Part shown: one piece after another, positions 40,432 through 56,360 of the stretch
Numbering within the stretch: position 1 is the first letter of the stretch
Layout of the letters: every line of letters begins with the position of its first letter
From: Methylococcus mesophilus
GTDB taxonomy: Bacteria; Pseudomonadota; Gammaproteobacteria; Methylococcales; Methylococcaceae
DNA: 64,000 bases
Assembly: GCF_026247885.1 (NCBI RefSeq)
Contig: NZ_CP110921.1
Span: 3,033,001-3,097,000, forward strand
Direction: 5' to 3'
Notes under the pieces: generated by a model
The model's database searches: none
Seen by the model: only the letters and a program-made list of their open reading frames with translations
What the model was told of the DNA's origin: nothing
Program-made: the position numbers and the translations under genes

Positions 40432-40436
40432 CATTT

Positions 40437-40543: not shown

Positions 40544-40574
40544 CTGGGGGCAGCGCTTCGACCGGGGGCGGCCG

Positions 40575-42590
40575 TTACAGGCCCAGATCGCTGATGAAGC
40601 GGTAGGTGTAGCCCCAGGCCGGCACGCTGGGGACCGAGCTGCAGGTCGGCGAGGCCGAGGCTTGGCTGCACGGCGTGTCGCGGTCGGCCGACCAGAAGTG
40701 GATGCCGGCGATACCGTTGGCGAGTGCCCACTGCACCATGGTGTCGGTGTCCTGCAGCGAGAACAACTCGTCGGAAACGTCGTTCACGCCTATCATCGGG
40801 GTCAGCTCGATCCGCGCGTAAGGAATGCCGTACTTGGCCTTCAGGTTCTTGGCCGCCTGGATGGCCGTCTGACCCATGTCACACAGGCCGTTCACGACGA
40901 CGCAGTTTCCGGCGTTGGCCGTGCCGTAGTCCATGACCATCAGGTTGATGGTGTAGTTGGCGACGCCATATTGCTGAACCGCCTTGACCACGTTGTGCCC
41001 CGTGACGTTCAGGTCGCCGTAGGGGTTCGACGTGACGGTCCCGTTGGACGATCCCAAGGTGGCCACGGTGAAGCTGAAGCGCAGGTTGGGATAGTCCGAC
41101 TGCACCGCGGCCACCTGCTGGACCAGACTGGCGATGGCGGCCTGGCTTTGGCCGGCTTCGATGTCGAAATCGATGCCCACCAGACGGTTCGAGGCATAGC
41201 GGTTGATGAAGGCCCGCATGCCGGCTTCGCTCGAACAGGTGAAAGCGCCTGCCGCGCCGCCGGTTGAGACGACGTAGTCCATGCCGGCATCGACGAAGGC
41301 TTGCAGGTTGGCCTGGACCAGAACATCGGGCTGGATGCCGGCCCAGTTCTCCTTGCCGCACTCGCCGGTCGCGAAGGCCCAGGTCACTGCGGATACCTTA
41401 GCCGGCAGCACGCTCAGGAGCGGCGACAGCGTGCCGGTCACCGCGGTCGACATGACGTTGCTGTTCCAGTTCATCGAGATCGTGACGTCCTTGTAGGGGC
41501 TGAACAGCAGGCTGCCGGCGCCTCCGGTCGGCGGGGTGGTCGGTACCGGCGTCGGACTCGGACTCGGCGTCGCCGATGCGCCCGGCGTCGGGCTCGGGGT
41601 AGCCGTGGGGCTCGGAGTGGCTGTCGGATTCGGGGTCGGCGTCGGGTTCGAATTCGGCACCGAGGGTGCGAACAGCACCGTCACCGTGGAGTCTGCAGCG
41701 GCTGCCTTCTGCAGGTTGGCCGGCGACCCACCGTTGAAGCCGCTTGCCGCCACGTCGCCGGGTGCTAGGGCCGCCACCCAGGATTTCGGCTTGAGCGTTG
41801 CGGTACCGTCGCCGGCGATGTTGACAGAAAAGTTCCAAGGTCCGCTCTTGAACACGTCCTGGGCAGTGGCTGCATCGGGAAATTGCAGCGGGGCCTGCCA
41901 GCCGTTGGCTCCGGCCTTCAAAGTCTTCGAGGACAGGTTCTTGACTGCGACGTTGCCGCTGTAGCCGCCATCCCACGAGCTGCTGATGGAAAACAGCACT
42001 TCCAGTTTCGGGCTTGCGATCGGAACCGGTGTTGCAGACGGGGACGGTGTCACCGAAGGTGCGGGTGTCGGCGTGGCCGATCCACCGCCCTGGTAGCCGG
42101 CTTTCAGGTTGGCCAGGGTCTGCTGGGCCGACTGGGACGTCATGGCCGAGATCACACAGGGCTGGCCGTTGAATTTGCAGTTGGCCAGATCGACAGAGGT
42201 GTCGAACGCGCCATTGGCGTTGAAGCCGACGTCCAGCACGCTGTTTGCGGCCACGTCGCTGCCCCAGGAAGGCGAAGTGAGGGTGAACGTGTTGGTTGCG
42301 GCGTCGAAAACGGCATTGGCGTTCCAGAAGGAAGAGGCCTGTGCCTGCCGGCCGAGGCCGGCCGACTGGAACGTCAGGGTCCAGCCGCCGCTGACCGCGT
42401 CGGGTACCCAGATTTGCAGGGCGCCGGTGTAGCCGGCCCAGGAATCGCTCGCGGTGCCCCAGGAGGAAGACGCGCTGACGATCGCGTTGGGTACCGGCGC
42501 GGGCAGCGTGGCGGCCTGCGCCGGTGTTCCTTCCGCGAGCGTAGCCACGAGGACCAGGCCGGACAGGGGGGCAAGAAATCTTGTGTTCAT
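40575..42590 (-). CDS. Secreted GH18 chitinase-like enzyme with two CBM2-like domains
   Basis: 671 residues. Signal peptide ending AQA; a first CBM2-like domain (~30-150, WAGYTGALQIWVPDAVSGGW); a Pro/Thr/Ser linker; a second (~200-310, SSSWDGGYSGNVAVKNLSSK); a long TPSPTATPSPTP linker (~315-350); then a GH18-type barrel (~360-670). The catalytic motif reads VGIDFDIEAG, with the DxDxE acid/base glutamate intact. MVMDYG and FWSADRD fit barrel strands of this family. It would hydrolyse beta-1,4 N-acetylglucosamine polymers or bind them outside the cell. AAGGAG precedes ATG 42590. Confidence 0.87.
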   Translation of the reverse strand: MNTRFLAPLSGLVLVATLAEGTPAQAATLPAPVPNAIVSASSSWGTASDSWAGYTGALQIWVPDAVSGGWTLTFQSAGLGRQAQASSFWNANAVFDAATNTFTLTSPSWGSDVAANSVLDVGFNANGAFDTSVDLANCKFNGQPCVISAMTSQSAQQTLANLKAGYQGGGSATPTPAPSVTPSPSATPVPIASPKLEVLFSISSSWDGGYSGNVAVKNLSSKTLKAGANGWQAPLQFPDAATAQDVFKSGPWNFSVNIAGDGTATLKPKSWVAALAPGDVAASGFNGGSPANLQKAAAADSTVTVLFAPSVPNSNPTPTPNPTATPSPTATPSPTPGASATPSPSPTPVPTTPPTGGAGSLLFSPYKDVTISMNWNSNVMSTAVTGTLSPLLSVLPAKVSAVTWAFATGECGKENWAGIQPDVLVQANLQAFVDAGMDYVVSTGGAAGAFTCSSEAGMRAFINRYASNRLVGIDFDIEAGQSQAAIASLVQQVAAVQSDYPNLRFSFTVATLGSSNGTVTSNPYGDLNVTGHNVVKAVQQYGVANYTINLMVMDYGTANAGNCVVVNGLCDMGQTAIQAAKNLKAKYGIPYARIELTPMIGVNDVSDELFSLQDTDTMVQWALANGIAGIHFWSADRDTPCSQASASPTCSSVPSVPAWGYTYRFISDLGL

Positions 42591-42963
42591 TTGCTCAACT
42601 CCTTCTTGGACTCACCAAGTTCGATGACGCCGGATGGCCATTGCGGCTGCGATAGAGCTGTAACAAGCTAATATGTCCTGCAGCGGAGAGCGGTTACATG
42701 ACATTGGCCACAGCCGTATGACATGGGGCACGCTAAATTGTTGCACCTGACTATTACTCCGGCCCAATTTTTTCGTACGCCGAACCCACTGCAGGCCGCA
42801 GCCGGCGTGAGGTGGCCGGTACGCTCAATTCGGGCCGGACCAATACGTTCTTTGCGGTGTTGCTGAAGATAATGTATTGAAGAATGGGGAGGAGTGAATC
42901 CTCCGGGGGGCGGCGCAGGTTTTCGGGTGCGGAAGGGCAGCGTAGCGCCCTCCCGCCAAGGCG
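42591..42963. other. Intergenic region between cbbQ and chitinase gene
   Basis: 373 bases between two genes on the minus strand. It should hold the cbbQ terminator and the chitinase promoter, but I see no strong hairpin-T tract. Weakly AT-rich around 42735-42775 (GCACGCTAAATTGTTGCACC). No gene supported. Confidence 0.4.
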
Positions 42964-43770
42964 TCAGAAAAACGTTGCTACGGCGGCGTCAAGGGTATCG
43001 CGTATATCCGGGTCGTCGGTGAGGGGACGGACGAGCGCCATCATGCAGGCTGCCCGGGGGGCGATGCCCTTGGCGATGAGATGGCCGGCGTAGACCAGCA
43101 ACCGGGTCGAGATGCCTTCGTCCAAGCCGTGGCCCTTGAGGTTCCGGGCACGATGGGCGATCTGCACCAGCTTCTCGGCGATCTTGGGATCGATGCCGGT
43201 CTCGTGCGACACCACATCGACCTCGACCGCGGTTTCGGGATAGCCGAAATCCAGTGCGCCGAAGCGCTGCTTGGTCGATTGCTTGAGGTCTTTCAGCAGG
43301 TTCTGGTAGCCGGGATTGTAGGAAATCACCAACTGGAAATCCGGATGTGCGTGAACCAGTTCGCCCTTTTTGTCCAGCGGCAGGGTGCGGCGGTGGTCGG
43401 TCAGCGGGTGGATGACCACGGTGGTGTCCTGGCGGGCCTCCACGACTTCGTCGAGATAGCAGATGGCGCCGATACGGGCGGCGAGAGTCAGCGGACCGTC
43501 CTGCCAGCGGGTGCCGCTGGCGTCGAGCAGGAAGCGGCCGACCAGGTCCGAAGCCGTCATGTCCTCGTTGCAGGCCACCGTGATCAGCGGGCGCTTCAGC
43601 TTCCAGGCCATGTACTCCACGAACCGGGTCTTGCCGCAGCCGGTCGGGCCCTTGAGCATCACCGGCATGCGCGCGGCGTAGGCGGCCTCGAACAGTTCCA
43701 CTTCGTCGGCGGTGGGGCGGTAATAGGGTTGTCCCTCGATCAGGTATTGGTCCGCGGATTGTGCGGTCAT
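42964..43770 (-). CDS. cbbQ: RuBisCO-activase-type MoxR ATPase CbbQ
   Basis: AAA+ ATPase of the CbbQ/NirQ/NorQ group; with CbbO it remodels inhibited RuBisCO. 268 residues. Walker [18 protein letters not shown] (~37-53), Walker [17 protein letters not shown] (~103), sensor region [19 protein letters not shown], arginine finger in STKQRFG. NorQ/NirQ are alternatives by sequence alone, but cbbLS lies upstream on the same strand, 8.8 kb away. CbbO is not in the window. It ends without an obvious terminator before the chitinase gene. Confidence 0.87.
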
Positions 43771-43807
43771 CGGTGCATGCTCTTTCTGGGGGGATCGGCC
43801 GGTCAGA

Positions 43808-44584
43808 TTACCCCAAACTTTGCGGCGTTGTCAGCTCGCCGATCGCCGCTTGCGGGTGGGCTCCCGTTGCGAAAGGCAGCAAGCGATAGCCCACGCATCT
43901 CTCCGCTTGAATGGGCAGAGCCAGGCCGCTGTGCCGGTATACGCGTTCCCGCAGGCGGCTGAAAATTACCTCCGTCCGATGCTTGTTGTAGTCCTCTGGC
44001 ATCGAGCCCAACGCGGCAGCCAGCTCGGCATGCGTACACGGCTCGCCCTGGTGGGCGAGGAGGGCATGCAGAAGCTGAGCCTCGCTCAAGGAAAGCCGTA
44101 TCCGCGTGCCGTTGGGCGTAACCAGCATGCCTAATCCGCTATCCAACTCCCATTGCCCGTCCATGGAGGCGCGCACCGGCCGCGGTTCCGCCGTTGCTGC
44201 AGTGGTCAGACGTTGCCCCAGCCGGCGCAGGATCAGCACCAGTTCGTCCAAGTCGACGGGCTTGACCAAATAGGCATCCGCCCCTGCATCGAGGCCGCTA
44301 AGGCGGTCGTCGCGCAATCCGCGGGCCGTCACGAACACGATGCCCATGCCGGTGTCATGCGAGCGCAGGTACTGGCATACCGACAGGCCGTCTTCTCCGG
44401 CGAGGCCAATGTCCAGCACGGCCACCGTTTTCGGCCGCACGGCCAGGTAACGGTAGAATTGCGCGGCATTTTCGAAGGTCTCCACGGCAAAGCCGTGATG
44501 TGCGAGCTGGAACGCCAGCTCTTCGCGCAGGACAGGCTCGTCCTCGACGATCGACACGGTGTAGGGCGGGGCTTTCTCAATCAT
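43808..44584 (-). CDS. OmpR-family response regulator
   Basis: 258 residues from ATG 44584 ([20 protein letters not shown]). The receiver domain (~8-122) has the acidic pair EDE, the phosphoacceptor aspartate in [15 protein letters not shown], the threonine in VFVTARG and the lysine in YLVKPVD. The winged-helix domain (~150-240) reads [20 protein letters not shown] and [13 protein letters not shown]. An upstream start (44596) is less likely because it would nearly meet the kinase start. Divergent from the kinase by 15 bases. Likely targets are discussed in the findings. Confidence 0.9.
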
Positions 44585-44599
44585 TTGGGAGAACACGGA

Positions 44600-45940
44600 T
44601 TGATCGACGTCCTTACTCTAGCCTTGGCCGCGGGCCTGGGCAATCTCGCCTTCGCAGCTCTCGCCGCGGTGTATGCCCGCTCCGCCCGTAATGCCAATCC
44701 GCCGCTGGCGATCTGGCGCTGGGCGCGCACCGTGGCCGGCGTCGCCTTCCTGCTGATCTGGCTGCGGCCGGCGATCCCGGCCTGGCTGTCGATGACCGCT
44801 TCGCACCTCCTGCTGCCGCCGGCCTGGGCGCTGGAGTTCGCCGCCTATGCCGGCCTGCTCGGCCTTAGCGGCTGGCGCCGGCCGCTGATCGGACTGACCG
44901 CCCTGGCGCTGGCCGTGCAGCTTGCCCTGCACGCTTTCGAGGTCGGGCGGCGCATCGACCTGATCTATTTCTCCTCGATCAACACCGCCTATTTCGAGGC
45001 CATGGCGGCCGTGCTGCTGCTCAGCCGTCAGCACGGCCGGCTGGCCCGGATGATGGCGTTCACCAATGCCGTGCTGGGCCTGCTGTTCTTGCTGCGCGTC
45101 GTGCATCTGGTCTGGATCGGCGACCATACGCTCGACAGCTACAAGGTTCTGCATACCCTGCTCTGGGTGGTCGGCTATCTGATCGTCACCGTCAACGGCT
45201 TCGGCTTCCTGCTCTTGTCCAAGCAGGACGACGACCGCAAGCTGCGCGAGGCCCTGGCCGACGTCTCCCTGGCCGAAGCCGAGCAGCGTCAATTGCTGTC
45301 CCTGGCCTCGCACGAATTCCGCACCCCTGCCGCCATGATCCAGGCCTCGCTCGACTCCTTGAAGCTATTGGCGGTCAGTCTTCCGCCGGCCGCCGCCGGG
45401 CGGCTGGACAACATCGGCAAAGCCACCCAGCGCCTCACCCATCTCGCCAACACCCTGATCGCCCAGGACCGGCTGCGCGAACTGCGCTTCGGCCTGGTGC
45501 GGCAGGAGGCCGACCTCAACGCCGTGGCGGCCCAGGTGGCGGAGCGCTATGCCCCGCCCATCCCCTGGCGCGGCCTGGACGGCGCGGCGCGCGTGGCGGT
45601 GGACGCCGAACTGCTGGCGATCGCCCTGCACAACCTGATCGACAACGCCCTGCGCCACAGCGCCGCCGGCGGGCCGCCCGAAGTCCGGCTCGAAAGGCGG
45701 GGAGACCTGCTGGAAATCGCCGTCGCCGACCGCGGGCCCGGCGTGCCGGACGCGGACAAGGAGGCCGTGTTCGAGCGCTTCTACCGCCGCGACGCCGGCC
45801 CCGGCAGCGGCCTGGGCCTCTCCATCGTCCGCACCATCGCCCGCCTGCACGGCGGCGAAGCCCTGGTCCGCGACAACGCGCCGCACGGCGCGGTGTTTGC
45901 CATCCGTCTGCCCTTCTCAACCTTCCCCGGTGCTGTCTGA
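44600..45940 (+). CDS. Sensor histidine kinase with polytopic N-terminus
   Basis: 446 residues from TTG 44600. The first ~210 residues form about six or seven membrane helices with very short loops, so the signal is probably sensed in or at the membrane. The H box is SLASHEFRTPAAMIQ (~233-247); the N box HNLIDNALRHS, G1 ADRGPGVPDADKEAVFERFY and G2 GSGLGLSIV are intact. It pairs with the divergent response regulator. A longer open frame upstream overlaps the regulator and is shadow. The TTG start is weakly supported by a nearby GGGAG. Confidence 0.88.
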   Translation: MIDVLTLALAAGLGNLAFAALAAVYARSARNANPPLAIWRWARTVAGVAFLLIWLRPAIPAWLSMTASHLLLPPAWALEFAAYAGLLGLSGWRRPLIGLTALALAVQLALHAFEVGRRIDLIYFSSINTAYFEAMAAVLLLSRQHGRLARMMAFTNAVLGLLFLLRVVHLVWIGDHTLDSYKVLHTLLWVVGYLIVTVNGFGFLLLSKQDDDRKLREALADVSLAEAEQRQLLSLASHEFRTPAAMIQASLDSLKLLAVSLPPAAAGRLDNIGKATQRLTHLANTLIAQDRLRELRFGLVRQEADLNAVAAQVAERYAPPIPWRGLDGAARVAVDAELLAIALHNLIDNALRHSAAGGPPEVRLERRGDLLEIAVADRGPGVPDADKEAVFERFYRRDAGPGSGLGLSIVRTIARLHGGEALVRDNAPHGAVFAIRLPFSTFPGAV

Positions 45941-45974
45941 GCCTCAGAGCGGTTTGCCGCTCGCCTTCCAAACG

Positions 45975-45999
45975 CTCTCATACTGAGAGTTATTGAGAG
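45975..45999. promoter_or_regulatory. Palindrome plus direct repeat, candidate response-regulator operator
   Basis: CTCTCA-TAC-TGAGAG is an inverted repeat, followed four bases later by another TGAGAG (45994-45999). The two TGAGAG copies start ten bases apart, one helical turn, as is typical for OmpR-type regulators. It lies between the kinase stop and the first exported protein gene, ~190 bases before its ATG. Confidence 0.4.
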
Positions 46000-46189
46000 C
46001 CAAAAAGGCTTGAGTTTGCTCTATTCTCGGTTCGTTCCCGCCCGCTATTAAGCAGGCATAGACGAACCCGCAGCGCGCGCCGCAAAGGGCGCGGGCAGGC
46101 TTCTATGTCAACCGGCAGAAGAGCGTCGGGATTCGGGCGGTACAGGAACCAGCCCCGGTTGGGGCAGCACTCACACGAAGAGGTGACGC

Positions 46190-47317
46190 ATGAGAGCAGG
46201 TACGAAACGGCCGGGGTTTTGGAACCGGCGGGATTTGGGAGCGGGGGCCGCGGTCTTGCTGGCCGCGGGTATGTGGCCGTCCGCCGGCGCCGCCGATCCG
46301 GCGCCGCGCGACACCGTGTTACTGCAGGATCTGAACGCGCATTATCCGCAGCAGTGCAAGCGCCCCATGGCGGGCAATACCGGCGCCACCGGGCTATGCC
46401 TCTTGGTCAGCATCAATCCCAAGGTGAGCGGCGATTTCCGTGTGCGCCCGTACAAGGATCCCAGGTCGGGAAAGCCGGCAGCGGATGTGCCCATGCCCGT
46501 CAACACCGTTCTGGCGCTTCCCCCCGGCGACTACGAGATTTTCAAAGCCACCGGCATAGACAGCCAAAACGTGGCCAAGGTCACGGTGCGGGAGAACCGG
46601 GTCGCCACGGTAACGACCATGACCCTGCGTTTCAAGAAAACCAAGCCGACGGTCACCTATAAAATCCAGCGCTTCCAGGCGGTGCCCGGCACCAACAACG
46701 GCGGCTGTCTGGCCGAATTCGTGAACGCGGGCGCACATGCCTACCTGCCGGGCAATTTCCTGATCAACCCCACCAACGGCGGCGAGCAGGTCAACCCGAA
46801 ATGCGAGCTCGGCGGCGTCACCTTCAACGCCGTGTCCGGCCAAGGCTATACCGTCAAGCCCGGACAAGTGACCGAGCAGGTGCTGACCGAGGCGGAAACC
46901 TACGTACACCCGAACAAGGTCAGTGCACTGACTTCCATCGCTCCTGCCATGCACGGTATTTCCAAGATCGGCTGGCTCACGAATTGGGGTTCCCATCAAG
47001 GTATTCCCAACCCCGATGCCAAGCCGCATGCGGCCTTGGCTTTCTACGGGCCCGGCAATTACACCTACATCGTGCCGTTCCGGTTCCGCCGCGACGCGAA
47101 AGCCTGCGGTCTGTCACTGGCGCAAGGGCTGATGCCGGAGGCCAAACTGCTGACCGGCTGCACCTTCAAGCAGGGACGGCTCAGCGGTTTCACCGTGAAC
47201 AAAGGCAGCTACTTCACCTACCACAACATGTACGGGATACCCGGCATCGCAGCCAACAACATCCGCAACGCCTTCACGGTGGAAAACGTCAACTTCAAGC
47301 TGCCCAAGGGGAACTGA
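46190..47317 (+). CDS. Exported protein of unknown function, 375 aa
   Basis: Signal peptide with a twin-arginine-like start (FWNRRDLGAGAAVLLAAG) ending AGAAD. The mature protein has six cysteines (QQCKRP, GLCLLV, GGCLAEF, PKCELGG, KACGLS, TGCTFK), which suggests disulfides in the periplasm or outside the cell. Beta-rich; an early LPPGDYEIFKATGIDSQNV stretch resembles carboxypeptidase-regulatory-like or PEGA-type beta domains, but weakly. No catalytic motif recognised. One base separates its stop from the next gene. It is preceded by the candidate operator. Confidence 0.7.
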   Translation: MRAGTKRPGFWNRRDLGAGAAVLLAAGMWPSAGAADPAPRDTVLLQDLNAHYPQQCKRPMAGNTGATGLCLLVSINPKVSGDFRVRPYKDPRSGKPAADVPMPVNTVLALPPGDYEIFKATGIDSQNVAKVTVRENRVATVTTMTLRFKKTKPTVTYKIQRFQAVPGTNNGGCLAEFVNAGAHAYLPGNFLINPTNGGEQVNPKCELGGVTFNAVSGQGYTVKPGQVTEQVLTEAETYVHPNKVSALTSIAPAMHGISKIGWLTNWGSHQGIPNPDAKPHAALAFYGPGNYTYIVPFRFRRDAKACGLSLAQGLMPEAKLLTGCTFKQGRLSGFTVNKGSYFTYHNMYGIPGIAANNIRNAFTVENVNFKLPKGN

Positions 47318-47318
47318 C

Positions 47319-49721
47319 ATGAAACGCAAACTTTTGGTCTGCGCTATCGCGCAAACATGCATCCTCGGCAGTGCCGACGGATCCAATTACACGTGGCAGG
47401 AGGGGGCCGGACGGCTGGCCTATAGCGTATTCAACCTGTCGGGCAATGATTGCAACATGGATCCGTATACTGCCGGCGCCAATGGCTATGCGCCCTCCGG
47501 CAGCCCGGCTCAGGCCGTGGGCTGGAACAGCTCGGGTTCTGTCCTGAGTTTCTTCCTCAATCCACTTACTGGTTTTTTGGACCCCGATCCGATAAATCCC
47601 CCGAATCAGTCACAAACAGGGACGTTGATCCCGGCCTTTGCGAGCGCTCAGACTTTCGAAACCAGTCAGGAATTCAAGGCCGGTGGCAATGCTATCGCGA
47701 TAGCCGACAGTTGGCTGGTGCCTTGCCTGATTCCTGGAACTCAGGATTCGTATACCTACATGGTTATGGCCAATATGGCCTCGGCGGGAAGCGGATTCTC
47801 GAATATTATTGATAACGATACTGTGTTCGATAACAGCCAGATCGACCCGCCATTCACCGCAAGCGACAGCAATCCGGGTGGCGCGGGATTCGTGAACAGC
47901 GCCAACGCCGTTTTCAACTTCAACGTCGACAGCGGTGCGAGCTACTATCAGGCCACCGGGGGGCTTTGGTCCGGCCTGCAGCCTTCCACGCTGAACACAC
48001 CCGCCTCCGGTTTCCCGGCAGTAAACGCGATTAGCGCGGCCATGTATCCCATCAATCTGGCGTCCTATACCACCAGCGAATCCAGCAACGGCGTGTCGAC
48101 GAACTATAACCCGATCTTCGGAGGCTTTTTCACGCTGGCGATCGGAGACCCCTTCATCGTCAGCAGCTTCAATGCGAAAATCCTGTGGTTTCTCGCCGCA
48201 TCGATCGGCTCTCCAAGTGGCGATCCCGCATTCCAATGGAACGACAGCTCGTTTCCATTCAGTAAAACGTCAACGTCGGCCGGAAACCAGTTGATCTTGG
48301 CCGCCTTGAACGGCACTTGTTCGGGATGCACCCCCGTGTTTGGGAGCAGCACCAACGCGGAAGCCTACACCAAATGGCTGATTTACGCGCCCCATCAAGC
48401 CGCGTATGAGGTTGTACAGTCCTTTAAAGCAGCCAACTCTCCGACCCTGACTTTCTGGGGCAAGCTCTTCGAGGGATTATGGTCGGCGACGGCTATCGCT
48501 CTGGATGCGGCCGCTGCAGTGGAGACCGGCGGCGCTTCCGCAGCGGCCCAGATAGCTGCGATCACCGCTGTAAGTGCGACGACGGGTAGTCTTACCTCGG
48601 TGGTCGATAACGGCATAAGCAATACGTTCGCCCAGCCCACGCCGACCTATCAGACGGCGCCGCTCGTCGTCAATTCCACCTATAGCGCCTCTAACCTGTT
48701 GGGCATGCTGCTGGCGAACTATGCTGTACAGTCCTGGGTTCAGGTGCTAGGCGTTCAGCCGTTTAACGAGGCTGCCAATCCGTTGTGGGCGAACTTCTCG
48801 ATCTATACCGAGAGCCTATGTAGTAATTTGCAGGTGAGCGCCAATCAGTTTTCATCGTCAATTACTTGTCAGAAAACAGAACAATCGAGTTTGTCCCCGC
48901 CGCCTACCTATAACAACGTCTACACAACAACGGCTGGTAGTAACAGTTCCCAACTCAACATCTGGGACGCCATACTTACCGGCTCGAACGTGACCGCAGC
49001 GACCAATCAGACGAGCACGAGCAGTGAAGCGAACGGCATGCTGGTGTTGGCCAATCCGCTGACAGCGTCCTTTCAGCCGCCGACGCAGATCGCCAGCGAC
49101 AGTGATGGCGTTACCTACTCAGCCGTGACGACGAACTTCAATCTGAGCAGCGGTTCTTTGTCGCTCACGGACGCTTACGCGTACACGAATCCGCCGAGCG
49201 CGGCACCGACGATAGAATCCTATACTTATCCGTATCCCATTACCTCAGATTGTTCTTCTATGACTTTTAGCCCTACAGGCGTTTCCTACACTCCCACATC
49301 AGGTGTGCTAACAGTGTCGGGGTGGTCTGCGGTATGCAACAAGCCGTCGGGAGAAACTTGGGAAGGGCAAGCTACGGCAATGCTGAATATGGCGACCTGT
49401 ACGGAAGGGTCAGCCGTACAGTTTGGTGTCGACGTGGTGCCGCCAAGTGCGACGAATCAATTTAGCCCAGTCGTTTCAAGCGTGTCCTTGGAATGCGCGA
49501 CCCCAAATCCGAACTTGGTTAGCAGTAGCAGCGGACCGTCGCTGGACTATAATCAATGCGTGTCCGATATCAATGCCACCGGCGGAGTGGTCGCGATGCC
49601 CATCAACGGTTCTCCTGGATTGGCCTGCGTCTGTATTCCCGGGTACCTAGCCGGCTCATCAGCGCAGTTGACTACCGGTGTGTCCACCGTGCCTAGCCCC
49701 AGTCCATGCCCTAGCCCGTAA
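47319..49721 (+). CDS. Large exported orphan protein, 800 aa
   Basis: 800 residues starting MKRKLLVCAIAQTCILGS, a short signal peptide. The mature protein is rich in Ser, Thr, Asn, Ala and Tyr and poor in charge, like surface or fibre-forming proteins. The central part (~375-440) contains hydrophobic alanine-rich helices (SATAIALDAAAAVETGGASAAAQIAAITA) that could insert in a membrane. The C-terminus has cysteine-containing YNQCVSDINATGGVV and GLACVCIPGYL, then a PSPSPCPSP tail. The coding DNA is less GC-rich than its neighbours, a hint of transfer. Translationally coupled to the 375-aa exported protein; the two probably act together. No family recognised. Confidence 0.7.
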   Translation: MKRKLLVCAIAQTCILGSADGSNYTWQEGAGRLAYSVFNLSGNDCNMDPYTAGANGYAPSGSPAQAVGWNSSGSVLSFFLNPLTGFLDPDPINPPNQSQTGTLIPAFASAQTFETSQEFKAGGNAIAIADSWLVPCLIPGTQDSYTYMVMANMASAGSGFSNIIDNDTVFDNSQIDPPFTASDSNPGGAGFVNSANAVFNFNVDSGASYYQATGGLWSGLQPSTLNTPASGFPAVNAISAAMYPINLASYTTSESSNGVSTNYNPIFGGFFTLAIGDPFIVSSFNAKILWFLAASIGSPSGDPAFQWNDSSFPFSKTSTSAGNQLILAALNGTCSGCTPVFGSSTNAEAYTKWLIYAPHQAAYEVVQSFKAANSPTLTFWGKLFEGLWSATAIALDAAAAVETGGASAAAQIAAITAVSATTGSLTSVVDNGISNTFAQPTPTYQTAPLVVNSTYSASNLLGMLLANYAVQSWVQVLGVQPFNEAANPLWANFSIYTESLCSNLQVSANQFSSSITCQKTEQSSLSPPPTYNNVYTTTAGSNSSQLNIWDAILTGSNVTAATNQTSTSSEANGMLVLANPLTASFQPPTQIASDSDGVTYSAVTTNFNLSSGSLSLTDAYAYTNPPSAAPTIESYTYPYPITSDCSSMTFSPTGVSYTPTSGVLTVSGWSAVCNKPSGETWEGQATAMLNMATCTEGSAVQFGVDVVPPSATNQFSPVVSSVSLECATPNPNLVSSSSGPSLDYNQCVSDINATGGVVAMPINGSPGLACVCIPGYLAGSSAQLTTGVSTVPSPSPCPSP

Positions 49722-49828
49722 TCTGGCGTGTTCTCATAGTTGCCTGATTCGTGGGCATGCAAAAGTATGCGGCGTCCGTGTTCCGGGCGCCGTTCCCGTA
49801 TCCTCTCTTGGTATCCAGCAGATATTGA

Positions 49829-49858
49829 AAAAAGCCCCTGCCCGGTTTCCCGTGCAGG
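49829..49858 (-). terminator. Terminator split by IS insertion
   Basis: AAAAAGCCCCTGC ... GTGCAGG is one arm and part of the loop of a terminator whose other arm, CAGGGGCTTTTT, is now at 51041-51052 on the far side of the IS element. The uninterrupted form is seen at 51854-51891. Confidence 0.85.
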
Positions 49859-49874
49859 TGACCTGCTCCCCGAT

Positions 49875-50723
49875 TTAGTCCGAAACGGACATAGAGTCTG
49901 CGGTTAAAAATGTGTCTGCAAACTGATCTGGCGTCAGGTAAGCCAACGAACTGTGGGGGCGTTGCTCATTGTATTCCCGACGCCACTCCTCAATGACTTG
50001 GCGAGCATGGCACATCGAGACGAACCAATGCTCGTTCAGGCATTCATCCCGGAATTTGCCGTTGAAGCTTTCGATGTAGGCGTTCTGCTGTGGCTTACCT
50101 GGCTGGATGAAGCTCAAGCACAGTCCTTGGCTATCGGCCCATTCATCCAAAGCCTTGCCGGCAAACTCGGGGCCGTTGTCGACGGTGACTGATTTGGGCA
50201 ATCCGCGGATCTCTGCCAGCCGTTGCAGCACACCGACTACACGTCTGCCAGGCAGCGAAGTATCGACTTCGATGGCCAAGCACTGCTTCGTGAAGTCATC
50301 GACGATATTCAGGCACCGCAGCCGCCGACCATCGGCCAAACCGTCCGAAACATAGTCCATAGACCAACTCTCGTTAGGCGCCGATGGCGCGACCTTGATT
50401 TGGCGCTCCACGCCGGCAATGCGCTTCCGCTTTCGTTTGCGGACCATCAGGCCGGCCTCGTGATACACGCGATAGGTGCGCTTTCGGTTGATTTCCCAAC
50501 CCTCTCGGCAAAGTAGCACGTGCAGCCGGCGATACCCATAGCGCCGCTTCTGCGCTGCCAATTCGCACAGTCGTTCCTTGAGCTCCTGGTCTGCTGGCCG
50601 CTTAGCTTCGTAGCGATACAGCGACCGAGAAATACCGATCAGCCCACAAGCCCGCGTGACGCCCATCTGGTGCTTTGTCATCAGATGGGAGACCGCCACC
50701 CTCTTGGCTTGTGGGCTTACCAC
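49875..50723 (-). CDS. IS3-family transposase OrfB (DDE integrase)
   Basis: Integrase-core transposase, 282 residues if read from GTG 50723, with a possible upstream extension by frameshifting from orfA. The HTH-like region RRYGYRRLHVLLCREGWEIN precedes the DDE core: SMDYVSDGLADGRRL (first D), VTVDNGPEFAGKAL (second D) and QNAYIESFNGKFRDECLNEH (E). The C-terminus reaches 11 bases from the left inverted repeat. All catalytic residues are present. Confidence 0.92.
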   Translation of the reverse strand: MVSPQAKRVAVSHLMTKHQMGVTRACGLIGISRSLYRYEAKRPADQELKERLCELAAQKRRYGYRRLHVLLCREGWEINRKRTYRVYHEAGLMVRKRKRKRIAGVERQIKVAPSAPNESWSMDYVSDGLADGRRLRCLNIVDDFTKQCLAIEVDTSLPGRRVVGVLQRLAEIRGLPKSVTVDNGPEFAGKALDEWADSQGLCLSFIQPGKPQQNAYIESFNGKFRDECLNEHWFVSMCHARQVIEEWRREYNEQRPHSSLAYLTPDQFADTFLTADSMSVSD

Positions 50724-50980
50724 TTTCGGCCTACAACCTCTTTCAACGCAGCATTGTCCAGCATCGCCTCCGCCAGCAGGCGCTTGAGCCGGGCATTCTC
50801 GGTCTCCAGTGCCTTGAGCCGCTGCGCATCCGACACTGTCAGGCCGCCGTATTTCGCTTTCCAGTTGTAGTACGTCGCCTCGCTGAGCCCGTGCTTGCGG
50901 CACAGCTCCGCTACTTTTAGGCCGGCTTCGGCTTCCTTCAGGATGCCAATGATCTGTTCTTCGGTGAAACGCTTCTTCAT
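50717..50980 (-). CDS. IS3-family transposase OrfA
   Basis: 87-residue helix-turn-helix protein (KKRFTEEQIIGILKEAEAG ... LCRKHGLSEATYYNWKAKYG) with a leucine-zipper-like C-terminal part (LKALETENARLKRLLAEAML). It overlaps the orfB frame near GRKW-stop, where a frameshift would make the OrfAB fusion. Confidence 0.92.
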   Translation of the reverse strand: MKKRFTEEQIIGILKEAEAGLKVAELCRKHGLSEATYYNWKAKYGGLTVSDAQRLKALETENARLKRLLAEAMLDNAALKEVVGRKW

Positions 50981-51079
50981 GCTGCCTCCTATCGAGGCAG
51001 ACTCTACATCACGACCGGACTAATCTCGGGGAGCAGGTCACAGGGGCTTTTTCTTGCGGCATCTTGCGCCGGAGGATGA

Positions 51080-51165
51080 TCAGACCATGGCCGCGCCTTG
51101 GCTCTGCTTGAAGTTGTCGCAGCCGACCAGACGGACATGATTATGTGTGGCAGGCTTCGGCGCGT
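51080..51165 (-). pseudogene. Remnant of cbbS 3' end (copy B)
   Basis: In the minus reading the last codons give [20 protein letters not shown] then V and stop; the real CbbS has [20 protein letters not shown] followed by IYRGPSV. Here the last six residues before the final V are deleted, and a further short deletion lies just upstream (AEACH joins HNHV). Upstream of that, similarity fades. It is followed by the same terminator as cbbS, now cut by the IS. Direct sequence comparison within the window supports common origin. Confidence 0.88.
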
Positions 51166-51229
51166 CGATGCCCGATTGTCCGGAAAAAAGGGATAAGCGT
51201 GCAGATGAACCGGACCGGGAAGTCGGCGT

Positions 51230-51547
51230 TCAGATTCCCGTCAGCAGGATGTCCAACGCGGCGAGGACGGTTTCCCGCGCTTGGCGTAAATCGCCGATTT
51301 TGAGCGGGAGTCGTTTTCTGGGGACGCCTGTCAGTTCCGGCGTCACCAGCACCAGGGACCGGCCTTCGAATTCCAATACCGGCATCAGGCCGCGAACCGG
51401 AGGCACGTCGACTTCGGCGGGATCGTAGAGGGGAATGAGAACGGTCGTTTTCAAGACGGCCAGGAGGTCGCTTTGTATTTCCAGCAGATACGGAATGCGT
51501 AGGTTCGTTTGCCGGTCCGGGTTGGGATAGACATCGAATTGAGCCAT
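51230..51547 (-). CDS. ccdB: CcdB-type toxin
   Basis: 105-residue CcdB, a gyrase poison in the characterised family: MAQFDVYPNPDRQTNLRIPY at the N-terminus, VLIPLYDPAEV, RGLMPVLEFEGRSLVLVTPE and the C-terminal LDILLTGI, the helix that contacts gyrase. The ATG at 51547 overlaps the ccdA stop (TGATG). Appears intact. Confidence 0.92.
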   Translation of the reverse strand: MAQFDVYPNPDRQTNLRIPYLLEIQSDLLAVLKTTVLIPLYDPAEVDVPPVRGLMPVLEFEGRSLVLVTPELTGVPRKRLPLKIGDLRQARETVLAALDILLTGI

Positions 51548-51783
51548 CAGAAACTGCGCCAGCCGTCGCCGAATACTCCGGTTTCTTCGATGCGCCGATT
51601 GTAGGCTTCGATGGCGCTGAGATTTTCCGCGAGCCATTGCTCTTGCTTTCGGGCCCTGATCAGTTCGGCCAGATGGGTTTCGAAGGCTTGCGAAAGATTG
51701 ATGTTCAGGGCTTTGGCTTCGCGCAACAGCTCGGCGTTGGCCGAGAGGTTGACGGCTTTTTTGCTGGCGTTGGGGAAGGACAT
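51547..51783 (-). CDS. ccdA: CcdA-type antitoxin
   Basis: 78 residues, the usual length: ribbon-helix-helix N-terminus (KKAVNLSANAELLREAKALN) and a C-terminal toxin-binding tail with NLSAIEAYNRRIEETGVFGD, a motif strongly conserved in CcdA. Expected to repress its own operon with CcdB. Confidence 0.92.
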   Translation of the reverse strand: MSFPNASKKAVNLSANAELLREAKALNINLSQAFETHLAELIRARKQEQWLAENLSAIEAYNRRIEETGVFGDGWRSF

Positions 51784-51853
51784 GGCGTGTCTCTTGCGTG
51801 CTATTCGTGCGCAGAAATTATGCGCACTATGACCCTCGGGCGCAATGGTCTGA

Positions 51854-51891
51854 AAAAAGCCCCTGCCCGGTTTGCCGTGCAGGGGCTTTTT
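51854..51891 (-). terminator. Terminator copy C, intact
   Basis: Stem AAAAAGCCCCTGC / GCAGGGGCTTTTT with a 12-base loop (CCGGTTTGCCGT). It closely matches the terminator split by the IS and resembles the functional cbbS terminator. Confidence 0.85.
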
Positions 51892-51918
51892 CTTGCGGTC
51901 TTGTGCGCCGGAGGAGGA

Positions 51919-51948
51919 TCAGAGCGCGGGTCCCCGTTAGCTCACCAC
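51919..51948 (-). pseudogene. Remnant of cbbS 3' end (copy C)
   Basis: In the cbbS frame the minus strand reads VVS-stop-RGPAL-stop, against MVIYRGPSV-stop at the end of the real CbbS. About 30 bases of coding sequence remain, directly upstream of terminator copy C, in the same orientation and at the same distance as in cbbS. Confidence 0.75.
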
Positions 51949-52053
51949 CGAATATTTCGTTAACGAGTCGTTATGATCAAGCCCGACGGGGTATGCTCAA
52001 GTCTGGACACGCCTGCTGGGCGTGAAACCGCAACCTACTCGGGAGGCAAGATC

Positions 52054-52437
52054 ATGATTGAATCGATCGAGACAGGTAGCAGCAAGATACTGGGTGTGAA
52101 ATTGAGCGGCAAACTGCGTGAGGAGGACTACAAGATATTCATGCCGTTGGTCGAGAACGCACTTGCGACCGCGGGCAAGCTATCTCTGTTTATTCGGTTT
52201 GAGGATTTCCATGGTTGGGATCTCGGTGCCGCATGGGAGGATCTTAAATTCGCGACGCGGCACTACGGCGATTTCGAGCGCATCGCTATGGTAGGAGAGA
52301 GCCGATGGCAGGAATGGATGGCCAAGCTGAGCATACCGTTCACCCAGGCTGCGGTGAGATATTTCGATGCGGTGGAGACCGAGCAGGCTTGGGCTTGGCT
52401 GCGCGAAACGGATCAGGCTCTATCGCAGTCCGATTGA
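52054..52437 (+). CDS. SpoIIAA-like (STAS-fold) protein
   Basis: 127 residues from ATG 52054 (MIESIETGSSKILGVKLSGK), preceded by GGGAGGC. LREEDYKIFMPLVENALATAGKLSL, FEDFHGWDLGAAWEDLKF and RIAMVGESRWQEWM are the blocks of the SpoIIAA-like family common in proteobacteria. Role unknown; it may bind membrane or partner proteins. It sits between two cbbS 3'-end repeats, opposite in strand to cbbLS. Confidence 0.85.
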   Translation: MIESIETGSSKILGVKLSGKLREEDYKIFMPLVENALATAGKLSLFIRFEDFHGWDLGAAWEDLKFATRHYGDFERIAMVGESRWQEWMAKLSIPFTQAAVRYFDAVETEQAWAWLRETDQALSQSD

Positions 52438-52480
52438 TTTCTCGGCCCTTGGCGGCCATTCGACATGGACGGAACAAACG

Positions 52481-52512
52481 AAAGCCCCTGCCGGTTTCCC
52501 GCCAGGGGCTTT
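52481..52512 (-). terminator. cbbLS terminator (copy A)
   Basis: Stem AAAGCCCCTG / CAGGGGCTTT about 30 bases after the cbbS stop. Parent form of the two other copies at 49829/51041 and 51854. Confidence 0.85.
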
Positions 52513-52541
52513 TCATTTCAGTCTTGCAGGCTAGAGGCGAA

Positions 52542-52898
52542 TCAGACCGACGGTCCCCTGTAGATCACCATGGCGGCGCCCTGGCTCTGCTTGAAGTTGT
52601 CGTAGCCGACCAGGCGGACGTGGTTGTGCGGATGCGCCTTGTGGCAGGCTTCGGCTTCGGCCAGGATGGCGTCGACGTCGGTCTCGCCGAACATCGGCAG
52701 TTTCCACATGTACCAATAGTGATCGAACGCGTTCTCCGGCTCGGTGTGCTCCACGGCCGGGTTCCAGCCGCGGCTGACGATGTATTCCACCTGGCGGCGG
52801 ATCTTCGCCGGGTCCATCGGCGGCAGGTACGAAAAGGTCTCGAATTTGCGTGAGCCGGTGTCGGACAGGCTGGATTTGTAGTCTTGCATATCGCTCAT
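52542..52898 (-). CDS. cbbS: Ribulose bisphosphate carboxylase small subunit
   Basis: 118-residue form I RuBisCO small subunit: [53 protein letters not shown] and [20 protein letters not shown] are conserved family blocks. It follows cbbL by 25 bases and is ended by a terminator. Its 3' end has two decayed copies further downstream. Confidence 0.97.
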
Positions 52899-52923: not shown

Positions 52924-54345
52924 TTACCGGTGGGCCACGTCGAGCTTGTCGACGGTGTCGAACTCGAACTTGATTTCCTTCCAGGTTTCCATCGCGGCCT
53001 TGAGTTCCGGGCTGCTCTTGGCGGCTTCGGTCAGGATTTCCTTGCCTTCCTTCTCAAGCTGGCGGCCTTCGTTGCGCGCCTCGACACAGGCTTCCAGCGC
53101 CACGCGGTTGGCTGCGGCGCCGGCTGCGTTGCCCCAGGGATGGCCCAGGGTGCCGCCGCCGAACTGGAACACCGCGTCGTCGCCGAAGATCGAAAGCAGT
53201 GCCGGCATGTGCCAGACGTGAATCCCGCCGGAGGCGACCGCGAATGCGCCGGGCATGGAGCCCCATTCCTGGTCGAAGAAGATGCCGCGGCTGCGGTCTT
53301 CCTTGATGGTGCGCTCGCGCAGCAGGTCGATCCAGCCCAGGGTGGCCTGGCGGTCGCCTTCCAACTTGCCGACGACGGTACCGGTGTGCAGGTGGTCGCC
53401 GCCGGACAGGCGCAGCAGCTTGGTGAAGACGCGGAAGTGGATGCCGTGGTTGGGGTTGCGGTCCATCACCGCGTGCATGGCGCGGTGGATATGCAGCAGC
53501 ATGCCGTTCTCGCGGCACCAGTTGGCCAGGCCCGTGTTGGCGCAGAAGCCGCCGGTGATGAAGTCGTGCATGATGATGGGCGCGCCGATTTCCTTGGCGT
53601 ATTCCGCGCGCTTGTACATCTCTTCCGGGGTCGGCGCGGTCACGTTCAAATAGTGGCCCTTGCGCTCGCCGGTTTCGATCTCGGCCTTTTCGGTGGCTTC
53701 CATGACGAAGTCGAAGCGCTGGCGCCAGCGCATGAACGGCTGGCTGTTGACGTTCTCGTCGTCCTTGGTGAAGTCCAGACCGCCTCTGAGGCACTCGTAC
53801 ACGGCGCGGCCGTAGTTCTTTGCCGACAGGCCCAGCTTGGGCTTGATGGTGCAGCCGAGCAGCGGACGGCCGTACTTGTTCATGATGTCGCGCTCGACTT
53901 GGATGCCGTTCGGCGGGCCGCCGCAGGTCATCACGTAGGCGATGGGGAAGCGGATGTCTTCCAGGCGCAAGCCGCGCACGGCCTTGAAGCCGAAGACGTT
54001 GCCCACCAGCGAGGTGAACACGTTGACGACCGAGCCTTCCTCGAACAGGTCGATTGGATAGGCGATGAAGGCGTAGAACTGTTCGTCCTGGCCGGGCACG
54101 TCTTCGATCCGGTAGGCGCGGCCCTTGTAATAGTCGAGGTCGGTCAGCAGGTCGGTCCAGACGGTGGTCCAGGTGCCGGTCGAGGATTCCGCAGCCACGG
54201 CGGCGGCGGCTTCTTCGCGCGGCACACCCGGCTGCGGGGTGATCTTGAAGACCGCCAGCAGATCGGTGTCGGCGGGGGTGTAGTTCGGGTCCCAGTAGGT
54301 TTCGCGGTATTCCTTGACGCCCGCGTTATAAGTTTTGACAGCCAT
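52924..54345 (-). CDS. cbbL: Ribulose bisphosphate carboxylase large subunit, form I
   Basis: 473 residues, form I of the green-like (IA) type. It carboxylates ribulose bisphosphate. Active-site stretches: [20 protein letters not shown], the carbamylated lysine and metal ligands in [43 protein letters not shown] (loop 6 lysine) and [19 protein letters not shown] precedes ATG 54345. All catalytic residues I can check are present. In a methanotroph it probably supplements RuMP carbon assimilation. Confidence 0.98.
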
Positions 54346-54431
54346 GGTTTTCTCCTACTCGTTTAGCAGAGCGCTGTGGCAATGAACCGCCGTTCCCTAG
54401 CCGGCATCGGGTCGATCCCTTTTCGCGAGGC

Positions 54432-54474
54432 ACTATAAGCGCTGGCATCCATAAACGGAACTAAATTGTCATAA
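54432..54474 (-). promoter_or_regulatory. Candidate cbbL promoter and CbbR box
   Basis: On the minus strand TTCCGT (54460-54455), 17 bases, TATAGT (54437-54432) form a weak sigma-70 promoter about 90 bases before cbbL. Immediately upstream, TTATGACAATTTA (54474-54462) fits the LysR-type CbbR pattern TNA-N7-TNA. No cbbR gene is adjacent. Confidence 0.4.
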
Positions 54475-54618
54475 TCACGACAATAAGCTCGCGTTATACT
54501 GAAAAGCCTGCCTTGCCGGCTCCGGGCCAGGGGGCGGATAGCATAATCCATGCGGTCCCATCGCTCCAAACCCGGCTCGCAGTCCGCACGACGCGTGGAA
54601 TTCCCGCGCCGGACACGA

Positions 54619-55209
54619 TCAGGTGTCCGGGGTGTGATCCGCATCGTTCCGGTTGCGGTCGCCGATATGCCGCCATCGGTAGAGAGCCAGGCCCGAACCG
54701 ATGATGAACAGCCCGCCGACCAGCAGGGATTCGTACTGGCGCAGATCGTCGATCATGCCGGCGATGGCTTTCCCGAACACCAGTCCCAGCCCCGTCGTTA
54801 CCACCGCCCAGACCCCCACGGCGATCACGTTGACCGTGGCATAGCGGGCCGGCGAGAACCGGCTCATGCCGATCAGGATGGGCGTCACCACCCGCAGGCC
54901 GTAGAAGAAGCGGAAGCCGAAGATGAAGTAGGAATGGTAGCGATGGAACAGCGTCGATGCCCGTTCCACCGCCGGCGCCAGGGACGGGAAGCGGCGCAGC
55001 AGCGCATCTCCGTGCTTGTAACCCAGCCAGAAGTAGCCTTGATCCGCCGCGAGCGTCACGACGAAGGCCAGCAGCACAATATGGTGGAAGGAAAAATAGC
55101 CGCGTCCCACCAAAAATCCCGCGATCAACAGGACGGTTTCGCCCTCCAAGAGCAGCCCGGCGATGAGGGCCGGGAAGCCGTACTCGGTTATCAGCGATTC
55201 GAAAGACAT
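54619..55209 (-). CDS. DedA-family membrane protein
   Basis: 196 residues from ATG 55209 (MSFESLITEYGFPALIAGLL). FLVGRGYFSF, DQGYFWLGYKHG, the F/Y-rich HRYHSYFIFGFRFFYGLRVVTPILIGMSRF segment with the conserved arginines, and four to five membrane helices are typical of DedA/SNARE-associated proteins, which are membrane flippases or proton-linked transporters. Divergent from the MoxR gene. Confidence 0.9.
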   Translation of the reverse strand: MSFESLITEYGFPALIAGLLLEGETVLLIAGFLVGRGYFSFHHIVLLAFVVTLAADQGYFWLGYKHGDALLRRFPSLAPAVERASTLFHRYHSYFIFGFRFFYGLRVVTPILIGMSRFSPARYATVNVIAVGVWAVVTTGLGLVFGKAIAGMIDDLRQYESLLVGGLFIIGSGLALYRWRHIGDRNRNDADHTPDT

Positions 55210-55355
55210 ACGGGGCGCATCTGCCTGGTAGCTTAAACGTTCGAATTCTAGAGTGCCAAGGTTAAGGCTGCGTGTAACCGGCTGGCGTGAATGCGGGGCC
55301 GCGGACACGCTTTATAATGTCCGTCCCGATCTACCAGCCAGCAAATCCCAAACGC

Positions 55356-56360
55356 ATGAATGCTACTCCCCAATCCTCTGCGGCGCCGGTTTCCAACGCG
55401 CGGCGGGACCTTCAGCGGCTCCGGACCTATCTCAACGCCCAGATCATCGGTCAAAGCGATCTGGTCGACGCCATGCTCATCGCCCTGCTGGCGGACGGCC
55501 ACATGCTGGTCGAAGGCGCGCCGGGCCTGGCGAAGACGCGGGCCATCCACGTCTTGAGCCGCGGCGTGGAAGCCGATTTCCAGCGCATCCAGTTCACGCC
55601 CGACCTGCTGCCGGCAGACCTGACCGGCACCGAAATCTACCGCCCCCAGGAGGGTTCGTTCCATTTCCAGCCGGGTCCGCTGTTCCACAACCTGGTGCTG
55701 GCCGACGAAATCAACCGCTCCCCGGCCAAGGTGCAGTCGGCCCTGCTCGAAGCCATGGCGGAACGGCAGATCACGGTGGGCAGCAAGACCTATCCGCTGC
55801 CCGGACTGTTCCTGGTGATGGCGACCCAGAACCCGATCGAGCAGGAGGGTACCTATCCCTTGCCGGAGGCGCAGCTCGACCGTTTCCTGATGTATGTGCG
55901 CATCGGCTATCCCAGCGCGGACCAGGAAAAGGCCATCCTGCACCTGGTGCGGGGCGAGGCCCGCCAGCCGGAGCGCAAGACCGCCGACGCGATGGTGCCG
56001 GTGAGCCAGCAGACACTGTTCGCTGCGCGGGAGGAAGTGCTCGGCGTCTACATGACCGAGGCGCTGGAGGATTACCTGCTGCAGCTCATTCTTGCCACGC
56101 GCGAGCCGGCCCGCTACGGCGATTCCCTGGCGCGCTGGATACTCTATGGCGCCAGCCCGCGCGCGACGCTGGCCCTGGACCGCTGCGCCCGTGCCCGCGC
56201 CTGGCTCGACGGCCGCGACTACGTGACTCCCGACGACATCCATGCCCTGGCGCCGTGCATCCTGCGCCACCGCTTGATTCTTAGCTACGAGGCGGAAGCC
56301 GAAGGCATCTCCACCGACCACGTCGTCAAGGACCTACTGCGGCGGGTGGCCGTGCCCTGA
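55356..56360 (+). CDS. MoxR-type AAA+ ATPase
   Basis: 334 residues from ATG 55356; a GTG/ATG further upstream is possible. Walker A MLVEGAPGLAKTRAIHVL, TPDLLPADLTGTEIYRP, Walker B LVLADEINRSPAKVQSALLE and ATQNPIEQEGTYPLPEAQLDRF identify the MoxR subfamily. These chaperones usually sit beside DUF58 and VWA-domain genes; here none follows and the next gene is pyrE 24 bases on. Function therefore uncertain. Confidence 0.9.
   Translation: MNATPQSSAAPVSNARRDLQRLRTYLNAQIIGQSDLVDAMLIALLADGHMLVEGAPGLAKTRAIHVLSRGVEADFQRIQFTPDLLPADLTGTEIYRPQEGSFHFQPGPLFHNLVLADEINRSPAKVQSALLEAMAERQITVGSKTYPLPGLFLVMATQNPIEQEGTYPLPEAQLDRFLMYVRIGYPSADQEKAILHLVRGEARQPERKTADAMVPVSQQTLFAAREEVLGVYMTEALEDYLLQLILATREPARYGDSLARWILYGASPRATLALDRCARARAWLDGRDYVTPDDIHALAPCILRHRLILSYEAEAEGISTDHVVKDLLRRVAVP

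What the first reader, a model, noticed from the sequence alone, without database searches (positions are those of the whole stretch)
51041..52898. The 3' end of cbbS is repeated three times, bracketing ccdAB and a SpoIIAA-like gene
Seen directly: the real cbbS end plus terminator (52481-52650) has two decayed copies in the same orientation. Copy B (51041-51165) still reads [20 protein letters not shown] and copy C (51854-51948) still reads RGPAL-stop, each followed by the same GCCCCTG hairpin. ccdAB lies between B and C, and the SpoIIAA-like gene between C and A. This is the pattern left when gene modules enter at, and duplicate, the 3' end of a host gene, as integrative elements do at tRNA genes; here the target would be a RuBisCO gene. 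A decayed tandem cbbS duplication that later picked up genes is the main alternative. No integrase is visible.
Basis: partly seen in the sequence, partly recalled or inferred. Interest (0 to 1): 0.75.

Follow-up and report, generated by a model that had tools for sequence, protein, structure and literature searches.

The report
RuBisCO-gene end stubs mark stacked insertions
In this methane-eating bacterium, extra genes have piled up between two carbon-fixation genes, and broken copies of the end of the RuBisCO small-subunit gene mark the seams; DNA exchange between related species explains this better than a dedicated integrating element.

Summary
Two decayed same-strand copies of the cbbS 3' end plus terminator lie downstream of cbbS (86.0 and 65.3 bits; best of 100 shuffles 28.3). 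Among six genomes of the genus this interval is empty in two, holds a ccdA remnant or ccdAB in two, and is 6-9 kb with three cbbS ends in two (window and G014).

The window is a recombination mosaic here. Upstream of cbbL and in the cbbQ body its closest genome is G011, which has no modules; in cbbS, 14 of 14 informative sites side with module-bearing G014. No integrase, cbbL remnant or 5' cbbS remnant was found, and the stubs start at different cbbS positions.

Best reading: a homologous-recombination hotspot anchored on cbbLS, with modules stacked by one-sided, homology-facilitated illegitimate recombination that left stubs. Recombination is moderately well supported (cbbLS p-AU 0.041); the stacking is inferred, and the direction of transfer is open. 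A dedicated insertion site or cbbLS duplication is less likely.

The parts
52924..54345 (-). cbbL, RuBisCO large subunit; proposed left recombination anchor
   Evidence: Pfam PF00016/PF02788; site patterns are mixed inside it, 34 for G011 and 42 for G014
52542..52898 (-). cbbS, intact RuBisCO small subunit
   Evidence: Pfam PF00101; 14 of 14 informative sites side with G014 over G011
52481..52513 (-). terminator A, the real cbbS terminator, between convergent cbbS and SpoIIAA-like gene
   Evidence: fold -30.2 kcal/mol, z -6.3
52054..52437 (+). SpoIIAA-like gene (module 1)
   Evidence: PF11964 E 4e-32; of six genus genomes only window and G014 have it
51854..51948 (-). copy C: last 29 nt of cbbS (decayed) plus terminator C; lies between the divergent SpoIIAA-like and ccdA genes
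   Evidence: 65.3 bits versus shuffle maximum 28.3; fold z -6.4
51547..51783 (-). ccdA antitoxin (module 2)
   Evidence: PF07362 E 5e-27; window 94% to G013, 96% to G014
51230..51547 (-). ccdB toxin (module 2)
   Evidence: PF01845 E 8e-28; window 95% to G013 and to G014
51041..51165 (-). copy B: right half of terminator B plus decayed cbbS fragment reaching back about 114 nt from the gene end; outer edge uncertain (match ends at 51161)
   Evidence: 86.0 bits versus shuffle maximum 28.3
49859..51040 (-). IS3-family insertion sequence, later insertion into terminator B; target duplication CAGG
   Evidence: Pfam PF13683/PF00665/PF01527; 25 matches in the genome among 40 of 68 candidates scored, 23 near full length; absent from copy B of G014
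49829..49858 (-). left half of terminator B, cut off by the insertion sequence
   Evidence: repeat D5, 97% to terminator C over 33 nt
47319..49721 (+). 800-aa predicted protein without Pfam match (module 3; not found in the five other genus genomes)
46190..47317 (+). 375-aa predicted protein without Pfam match (module 3; not found in the five other genus genomes)
44618..45940 (+). sensor histidine kinase (start codon uncertain), shared with G014
   Evidence: PF02518; 92.5% to G014
43808..44596 (-). response regulator, shared with G014
   Evidence: PF00072, PF00486; 78% to G014 over 726 nt
42964..43770 (-). cbbQ, proposed right anchor; body closest to G011, leader like the module-bearing genomes
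   Evidence: CbbQ_C PF08406

Best explanation
The cbbS-cbbQ interval of this genus is a homologous-recombination hotspot. The conserved cbbLS genes on one side and cbbQ on the other let DNA from related species recombine in, bringing whatever lies between. Shown: the interval varies among the six genus genomes, and the window's cbbS does not share the history of its flanks. Inferred: modules were stacked one after another. In each round incoming DNA carrying [cbbS - terminator - module] paired with the resident cbbLS on one side and joined illegitimately inside the resident cbbS 3' end on the other. The cell keeps one intact cbbS, and the old module is pushed downstream behind a stub of the old cbbS end plus its terminator. 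By position and decay, B would be the older stub and C the younger. Terminators A and B lie between convergent genes and may be kept as insulators; C does not. The IS later jumped into terminator B.
For: Interval in six genus genomes, cbbS stop to cbbQ match: 90 bp G011, 118 bp G010, 254 bp with a ccdA remnant G012, 803 bp with ccdAB G013, 6.3 kb G014, and 8.77 kb in the window. Mosaic: upstream of cbbL the tree pairs window+G011 (99; window+G014 p-AU 0.0019); cbbLS pairs window+G014 (91; window+G011 p-AU 0.041); the cbbQ body pairs window+G011 again (92; window+G014 p-AU 0.016). In cbbS 0 informative sites favour G011 and 14 favour G014, against 308 and 37 upstream (Fisher 2.5e-13). Window-to-G014 identity is 95-96% in ccdAB, 97% in cbbS and 92.5% in the kinase, but 80-86% in three genes upstream of cbbL. 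The first aligned 100 columns at cbbQ (mostly leader) match G014, G013 and G012 at 68-74% but G010 and G011 at 37%. G013's two cbbLS loci are 98.8% identical over 1,798 nt and part abruptly about 45 nt before the cbbS end, while their cbbQ genes are 84% identical: cbbLS recombines with an edge inside the cbbS end. No integrase among nine genes scanned. ComEC and DprA are encoded. The same stacking logic is proposed for V. cholerae T6SS arrays (PMC5361080, passages).
Against: No genome with cbbS-terminator-SpoIIAA alone was found, so that donor state is missing. Only six genus genomes are held, one 87% complete. The tree conflict is moderate: cbbLS p-AU 0.041, cbbL alone 0.052, and for cbbS alone or the cbbQ 5' end alone neither pairing is rejected; the pairs were chosen after seeing identities, and of the branches named here only the upstream one is clearly supported. 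Sites in cbbL are mixed, 34 for G011 and 42 for G014. The response regulator is only 78% identical to G014's, so one recent transfer of the whole block does not fit; several exchanges would be needed. ccdAB at 94-95% to G013 is only a little above that genome's flanks (89-92%). On the upstream tree ccdAB could also be ancestral and lost in G010 and G011, so the direction of transfer is open. Linkers of A, B and C do not pair by position between window and G014. Terminator C is not between convergent genes, and terminator B of G014 is weak (z -2.95; 3 of 200 shuffles fold as well). Competence-family genes also ring in 10-11 of 14 control genomes.
Confidence: 0.55

Rival explanations
1. Integrative elements used the cbbS 3' end as attachment site and each brought a replacement 3' end, as elements do at tRNA genes; the integrases were lost or acted in trans.
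For: Intact cbbS with displaced 3' ends in the same orientation at module edges; the outer edge of copy C reads alike in window and G014.
Against: No site-specific recombinase among the nine genes scanned; recognisable stubs of 29 and about 114 nt, though decay limits this; ccdAB in G013 has no second cbbS end; of 92 loci tested only G014 (two records of one genome) has such copies.
Confidence: 0.13
2. Partial tandem duplications of the cbbS 3' end and terminator arose first in the chromosome; unrelated genes were later inserted between them.
For: Copies in tandem orientation; the left half of terminator B is 97% identical to terminator C over 33 nt.
Against: No cbbL remnant and nothing of the first 200 nt of cbbS in the interval at E <= 0.01; G013 and G012 have the ccdAB module or its remnant without extra cbbS ends; it needs several independent insertions placed between the copies.
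Confidence: 0.2
3. The insertion sequence built the arrangement, for example as a composite transposon or by adjacent rearrangement.
For: An IS3-family element sits in copy B's terminator and has many copies in the genome.
Against: G014 has all three copies and both modules with an uninterrupted terminator B; the IS has a 4-bp duplication and only one of its matches lies in the interval.
Confidence: 0.03

Closest known systems
Homologous-recombination hotspots flanked by core genes (Oliveira et al. 2017, PMC5635113; passages seen)
   Same: Variable gene content between conserved genes, no integrase found, tree conflict in a flanking gene.
   Different: Here the insertions have left repeated stubs of the flanking gene; six genomes, one per species, do not allow turnover rates.
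Stacked effector-immunity arrays of Vibrio cholerae T6SS clusters, proposed to form by homology-facilitated illegitimate recombination (Kirchberger et al. 2017, PMC5361080; passages seen; authors' names recalled)
   Same: New modules enter at a conserved anchor and push older ones, with truncated 3' ends, downstream in one direction.
   Different: The anchor is a metabolic gene (RuBisCO), the stubs carry a terminator, and the modules are unrelated to the anchor.
Integrative elements at 3' ends of genes (recalled, no call)
   Same: Intact host gene with a displaced 3' end beyond the insert.
   Different: No recombinase found, no fixed core site seen.

Membership tests
Homologous-recombination hotspot | Different gene content between the same two conserved genes in relatives | tested here: met
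   Six genus genomes, intervals from 90 bp to 8.77 kb
Homologous-recombination hotspot | No integrase or mobile-element machinery explains the insertion | tested here: met
   Nine predicted genes scanned; only an IS3 transposase that G014 lacks in copy B. Short ORFs were not scanned
Homologous-recombination hotspot | Flanking conserved genes show recombination (tree conflict) | tested here: met
   moderate, cbbLS p-AU 0.041 and cbbL alone 0.052
Stacking by homology-facilitated illegitimate recombination | Truncated resident 3' ends at the edge of displaced modules, same orientation | tested here: met
   Copies B and C
Stacking by homology-facilitated illegitimate recombination | Homologous joint on one side, non-homologous joint on the other | tested here: inconclusive
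   A switch of history inside cbbLS is seen; the other joint cannot be compared with a donor, none was found
Integrative element at gene 3' end | Site-specific recombinase gene | tested here: not met
   Nine genes of the interval scanned
Integrative element at gene 3' end | Identical attachment core at each copy | tested here: inconclusive
   Recognisable stubs of 29 and about 114 nt of cbbS, but both are decayed
Tandem cbbLS duplication and decay | Remnants of cbbL or 5' cbbS between the copies | tested here: not met
   E <= 0.01

The most novel reading that the evidence does not exclude
The cbbS 3' end with its terminator hairpin is a preferred landing place for small integrase-less gene cassettes that travel between methanotrophs as [gene end - terminator - cargo] units, with the hairpin itself promoting the joining.
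Probability: 0.07. Interest if true: 0.65.

Novelty: new member of a known kind. Interest (0 to 1): 0.36.

Why it matters
It is a partly readable record of how accessory genes can accumulate beside a central carbon-fixation operon without a recognisable mobile element: the stubs give the direction and perhaps the order of arrivals. It suggests that conserved RuBisCO genes can serve as the anchor by which neighbouring cargo (a toxin-antitoxin pair, a two-component system) moves between species, which bears on the use of cbbLS trees to follow organisms.

Tried and rejected
Simple cbbLS duplication: searched the interval of window and G014 with cbbL, cbbS and cbbQ. In the window only the cbbS 3' part in copy B matched well. 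Weaker hits were 37 nt (E 0.001) and 15 nt in the kinase gene on the other strand and 26 nt (E 0.004) inside the IS; in G014 one 15-nt hit. I take these as chance. IS as the cause: rejected because G014 has the same copies without the IS. IS targeting of hairpins: 20 of the 22 other near-full-length copies were fetched; 19 had both ends detected, 14 of these a 4-bp duplication and 5 none; none reached the window site's hairpin z of -3.7 (next -1.9), so the terminator insertion looks accidental. Terminator as a dispersed repeat: the own genome holds it only here. L014/L115, L042, L055 and L071 gave short local repeats or hairpins instead. The window was not among the 94. In several other genera of the family a gene that I read by eye as an alpha/beta hydrolase fills a cbbS-cbbQ interval of about 1-2 kb, without cbbS copies. 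Plasmid search: the 20 of 31 records listed match only the IS. Order of events from linker sequences: inconclusive.

Full report
1. The observation. Downstream of cbbS (52542-52898, minus strand) there are two decayed copies of the cbbS 3' end with its terminator, both in the cbbS orientation. Against 40001-52470, the A-to-B match scores 86.0 bits and the A-to-C match 65.3 bits, while the best of 100 dinucleotide shuffles of A reached 28.3. In the own genome (4,343,116 bases, one contig) a 121-bp query around copy C matches only this locus (5 places). The window's hairpins fold strongly: A -30.2 kcal/mol, z -6.3; C -28.8 kcal/mol, z -6.4. Correction: terminator B is split by an IS3-family element of 1,182 bp at 49859-51040 with the 4-bp duplication CAGG. 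Most rows listed by the plasmid search that match it are annotated as IS476-family. It has 25 matches in the genome, 23 near full length; 40 of 68 candidates were scored, so this is a lower bound.

2. The surroundings. The extra DNA does not stop at copy B. It continues through two predicted proteins without Pfam match (46190-47317, 47319-49721), a sensor kinase (44618-45940) and a response regulator (43808-44596) to cbbQ (42964-43770). So 8.77 kb separates cbbS from cbbQ. In 85 of 94 loci from other records a cbbQ was found downstream of cbbS, and the gap was mostly 60-600 bp (six genomes occur twice in the 94).

3. Relatives. Six genomes of the genus are held, the window's included. The name Methylococcus rests on L006, whose contig has the same length as G014's. 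G010 and G011: cbbS, a short spacer, cbbQ (118 and 90 bp). G012: cbbS, terminator, remnant of ccdA, cbbQ (254 bp). G013: cbbS, terminator, ccdAB, cbbQ (803 bp). G014: 6.3 kb with the SpoIIAA-like gene, ccdAB and three terminators in the same order as the window, no IS in copy B, but different genes just beyond copy B. Further on, kinase and regulator are again shared by window and G014. Of 92 loci that could be tested, only G014 (as L006 and L104) has downstream copies of its own cbbS end. From its size and second cbbLSQ copy, G013 is probably strain Mc7 of PMC8527097 (inference; passages seen).

4. A mosaic. Over 54346-56300, upstream of cbbL, 308 informative sites pair the window with G011 and 37 with G014. 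In cbbL the counts are 34 and 42, in cbbS 0 and 14 (cbbS against upstream, Fisher 2.5e-13). Trees (quick method): upstream window+G011, support 99, window+G014 rejected (p-AU 0.0019); cbbLS window+G014, support 91, window+G011 p-AU 0.041; cbbL alone window+G014, 91, window+G011 p-AU 0.052; cbbQ body window+G011, 92, window+G014 p-AU 0.016. For cbbS alone (0.083 and 0.39) and for the cbbQ 5' end alone (0.16 and 0.49) neither pairing is rejected. The pairs were chosen after the identities had been seen. The first aligned 100 columns at cbbQ, mostly leader, match G014, G013 and G012 at 68-74% and G010 and G011 at 37%.

5. Identities to G014: cbbS 97%, cbbL 96%, ccdAB 95-96%, kinase 92.5%, SpoIIAA-like 87.5%, cbbQ 89%, response regulator 78%, and 80-86% for three genes upstream of cbbL. 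The unevenness argues for several exchanges rather than one recent transfer of the whole block. ccdAB is 94-95% identical to G013's, little above G013's flanks (89-92%). On the upstream tree ccdAB could be ancestral in the genus and lost in G010 and G011, or G011 could have received an empty interval; the direction is open.

6. cbbLS recombines. G013 has two cbbLSQ loci about 74 kb apart. Their cbbLS are 98.8% identical over 1,798 nt and part abruptly about 45 nt before the cbbS end, while the cbbQ genes are 84% identical. This looks like gene conversion with an edge inside the cbbS 3' end.

7. Mechanism. The recognisable stubs differ in length: 29 nt of cbbS in C and about 114 nt in B, both decayed. 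No site-specific recombinase was found among nine genes of the interval (short ORFs not scanned). No cbbL remnant and nothing of the first 200 nt of cbbS was found at E <= 0.01. The stubs lie at the cbbS-proximal edge of the downstream modules, and the only intact cbbS is next to cbbL. This is what one-sided homologous joining with an illegitimate joint in the resident cbbS end would leave. It was proposed, not proven, for V. cholerae effector-immunity arrays (PMC5361080, passages). ComEC and DprA homologues are encoded, as in most control genomes, so DNA uptake is possible but not shown. What is shown is the variable interval and the mosaic; the stacking steps are inferred.

8. Against. No donor-like strain with cbbS-terminator-SpoIIAA alone was found. 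The linkers between stop codon and hairpin do not sort by position between window and G014 (one row there holds a few extra bases from a mis-cut). Copy B of G014 keeps only about 20 nt of cbbS before unrelated sequence, and its hairpin is weaker (z -2.95). A partial tandem duplication before gene entry cannot be excluded.

9. Novelty. Integrase-less hotspots with recombining flanks are known (PMC5635113, passages). I found no description of this locus with (Methylococcus, cbbS, cbbQ: five papers listed, passages of one seen; RuBisCO, cbbLS, homologous recombination, horizontal: one paper listed, not opened). It is a new example of a known kind.

Noticed in passing
window 49859-51040 and other genome copies (L134-L153): IS3-family element with at least 25 matches in the genome; 14 of 19 fetched copies with both ends show a 4-bp duplication, and none of the 19 lies in a hairpin as strong as the window's.
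   Followed up: yes
L106 and L107 (G013): Two cbbLSQ loci about 74 kb apart with near-identical cbbLS but diverged cbbQ and a different cbbS C-terminus: apparent gene conversion ending about 45 nt before the cbbS end.
   Followed up: partly
window 46190-49721 versus L104 5636-8049: Different pairs of predicted proteins without Pfam match sit at the same place beyond copy B in the window and G014.
   Followed up: partly
L104 8163-8222: In G014 copy B the short cbbS stub is followed by what reads like the last 20 residues of an unrelated protein; no source found among the loci held.
   Followed up: partly
L110, L111, L112, L116, L117: A gene read by eye as an alpha/beta hydrolase (not scanned) lies between cbbS and cbbQ in several other genera of the family and is not at this place in G010/G011.
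   Followed up: no
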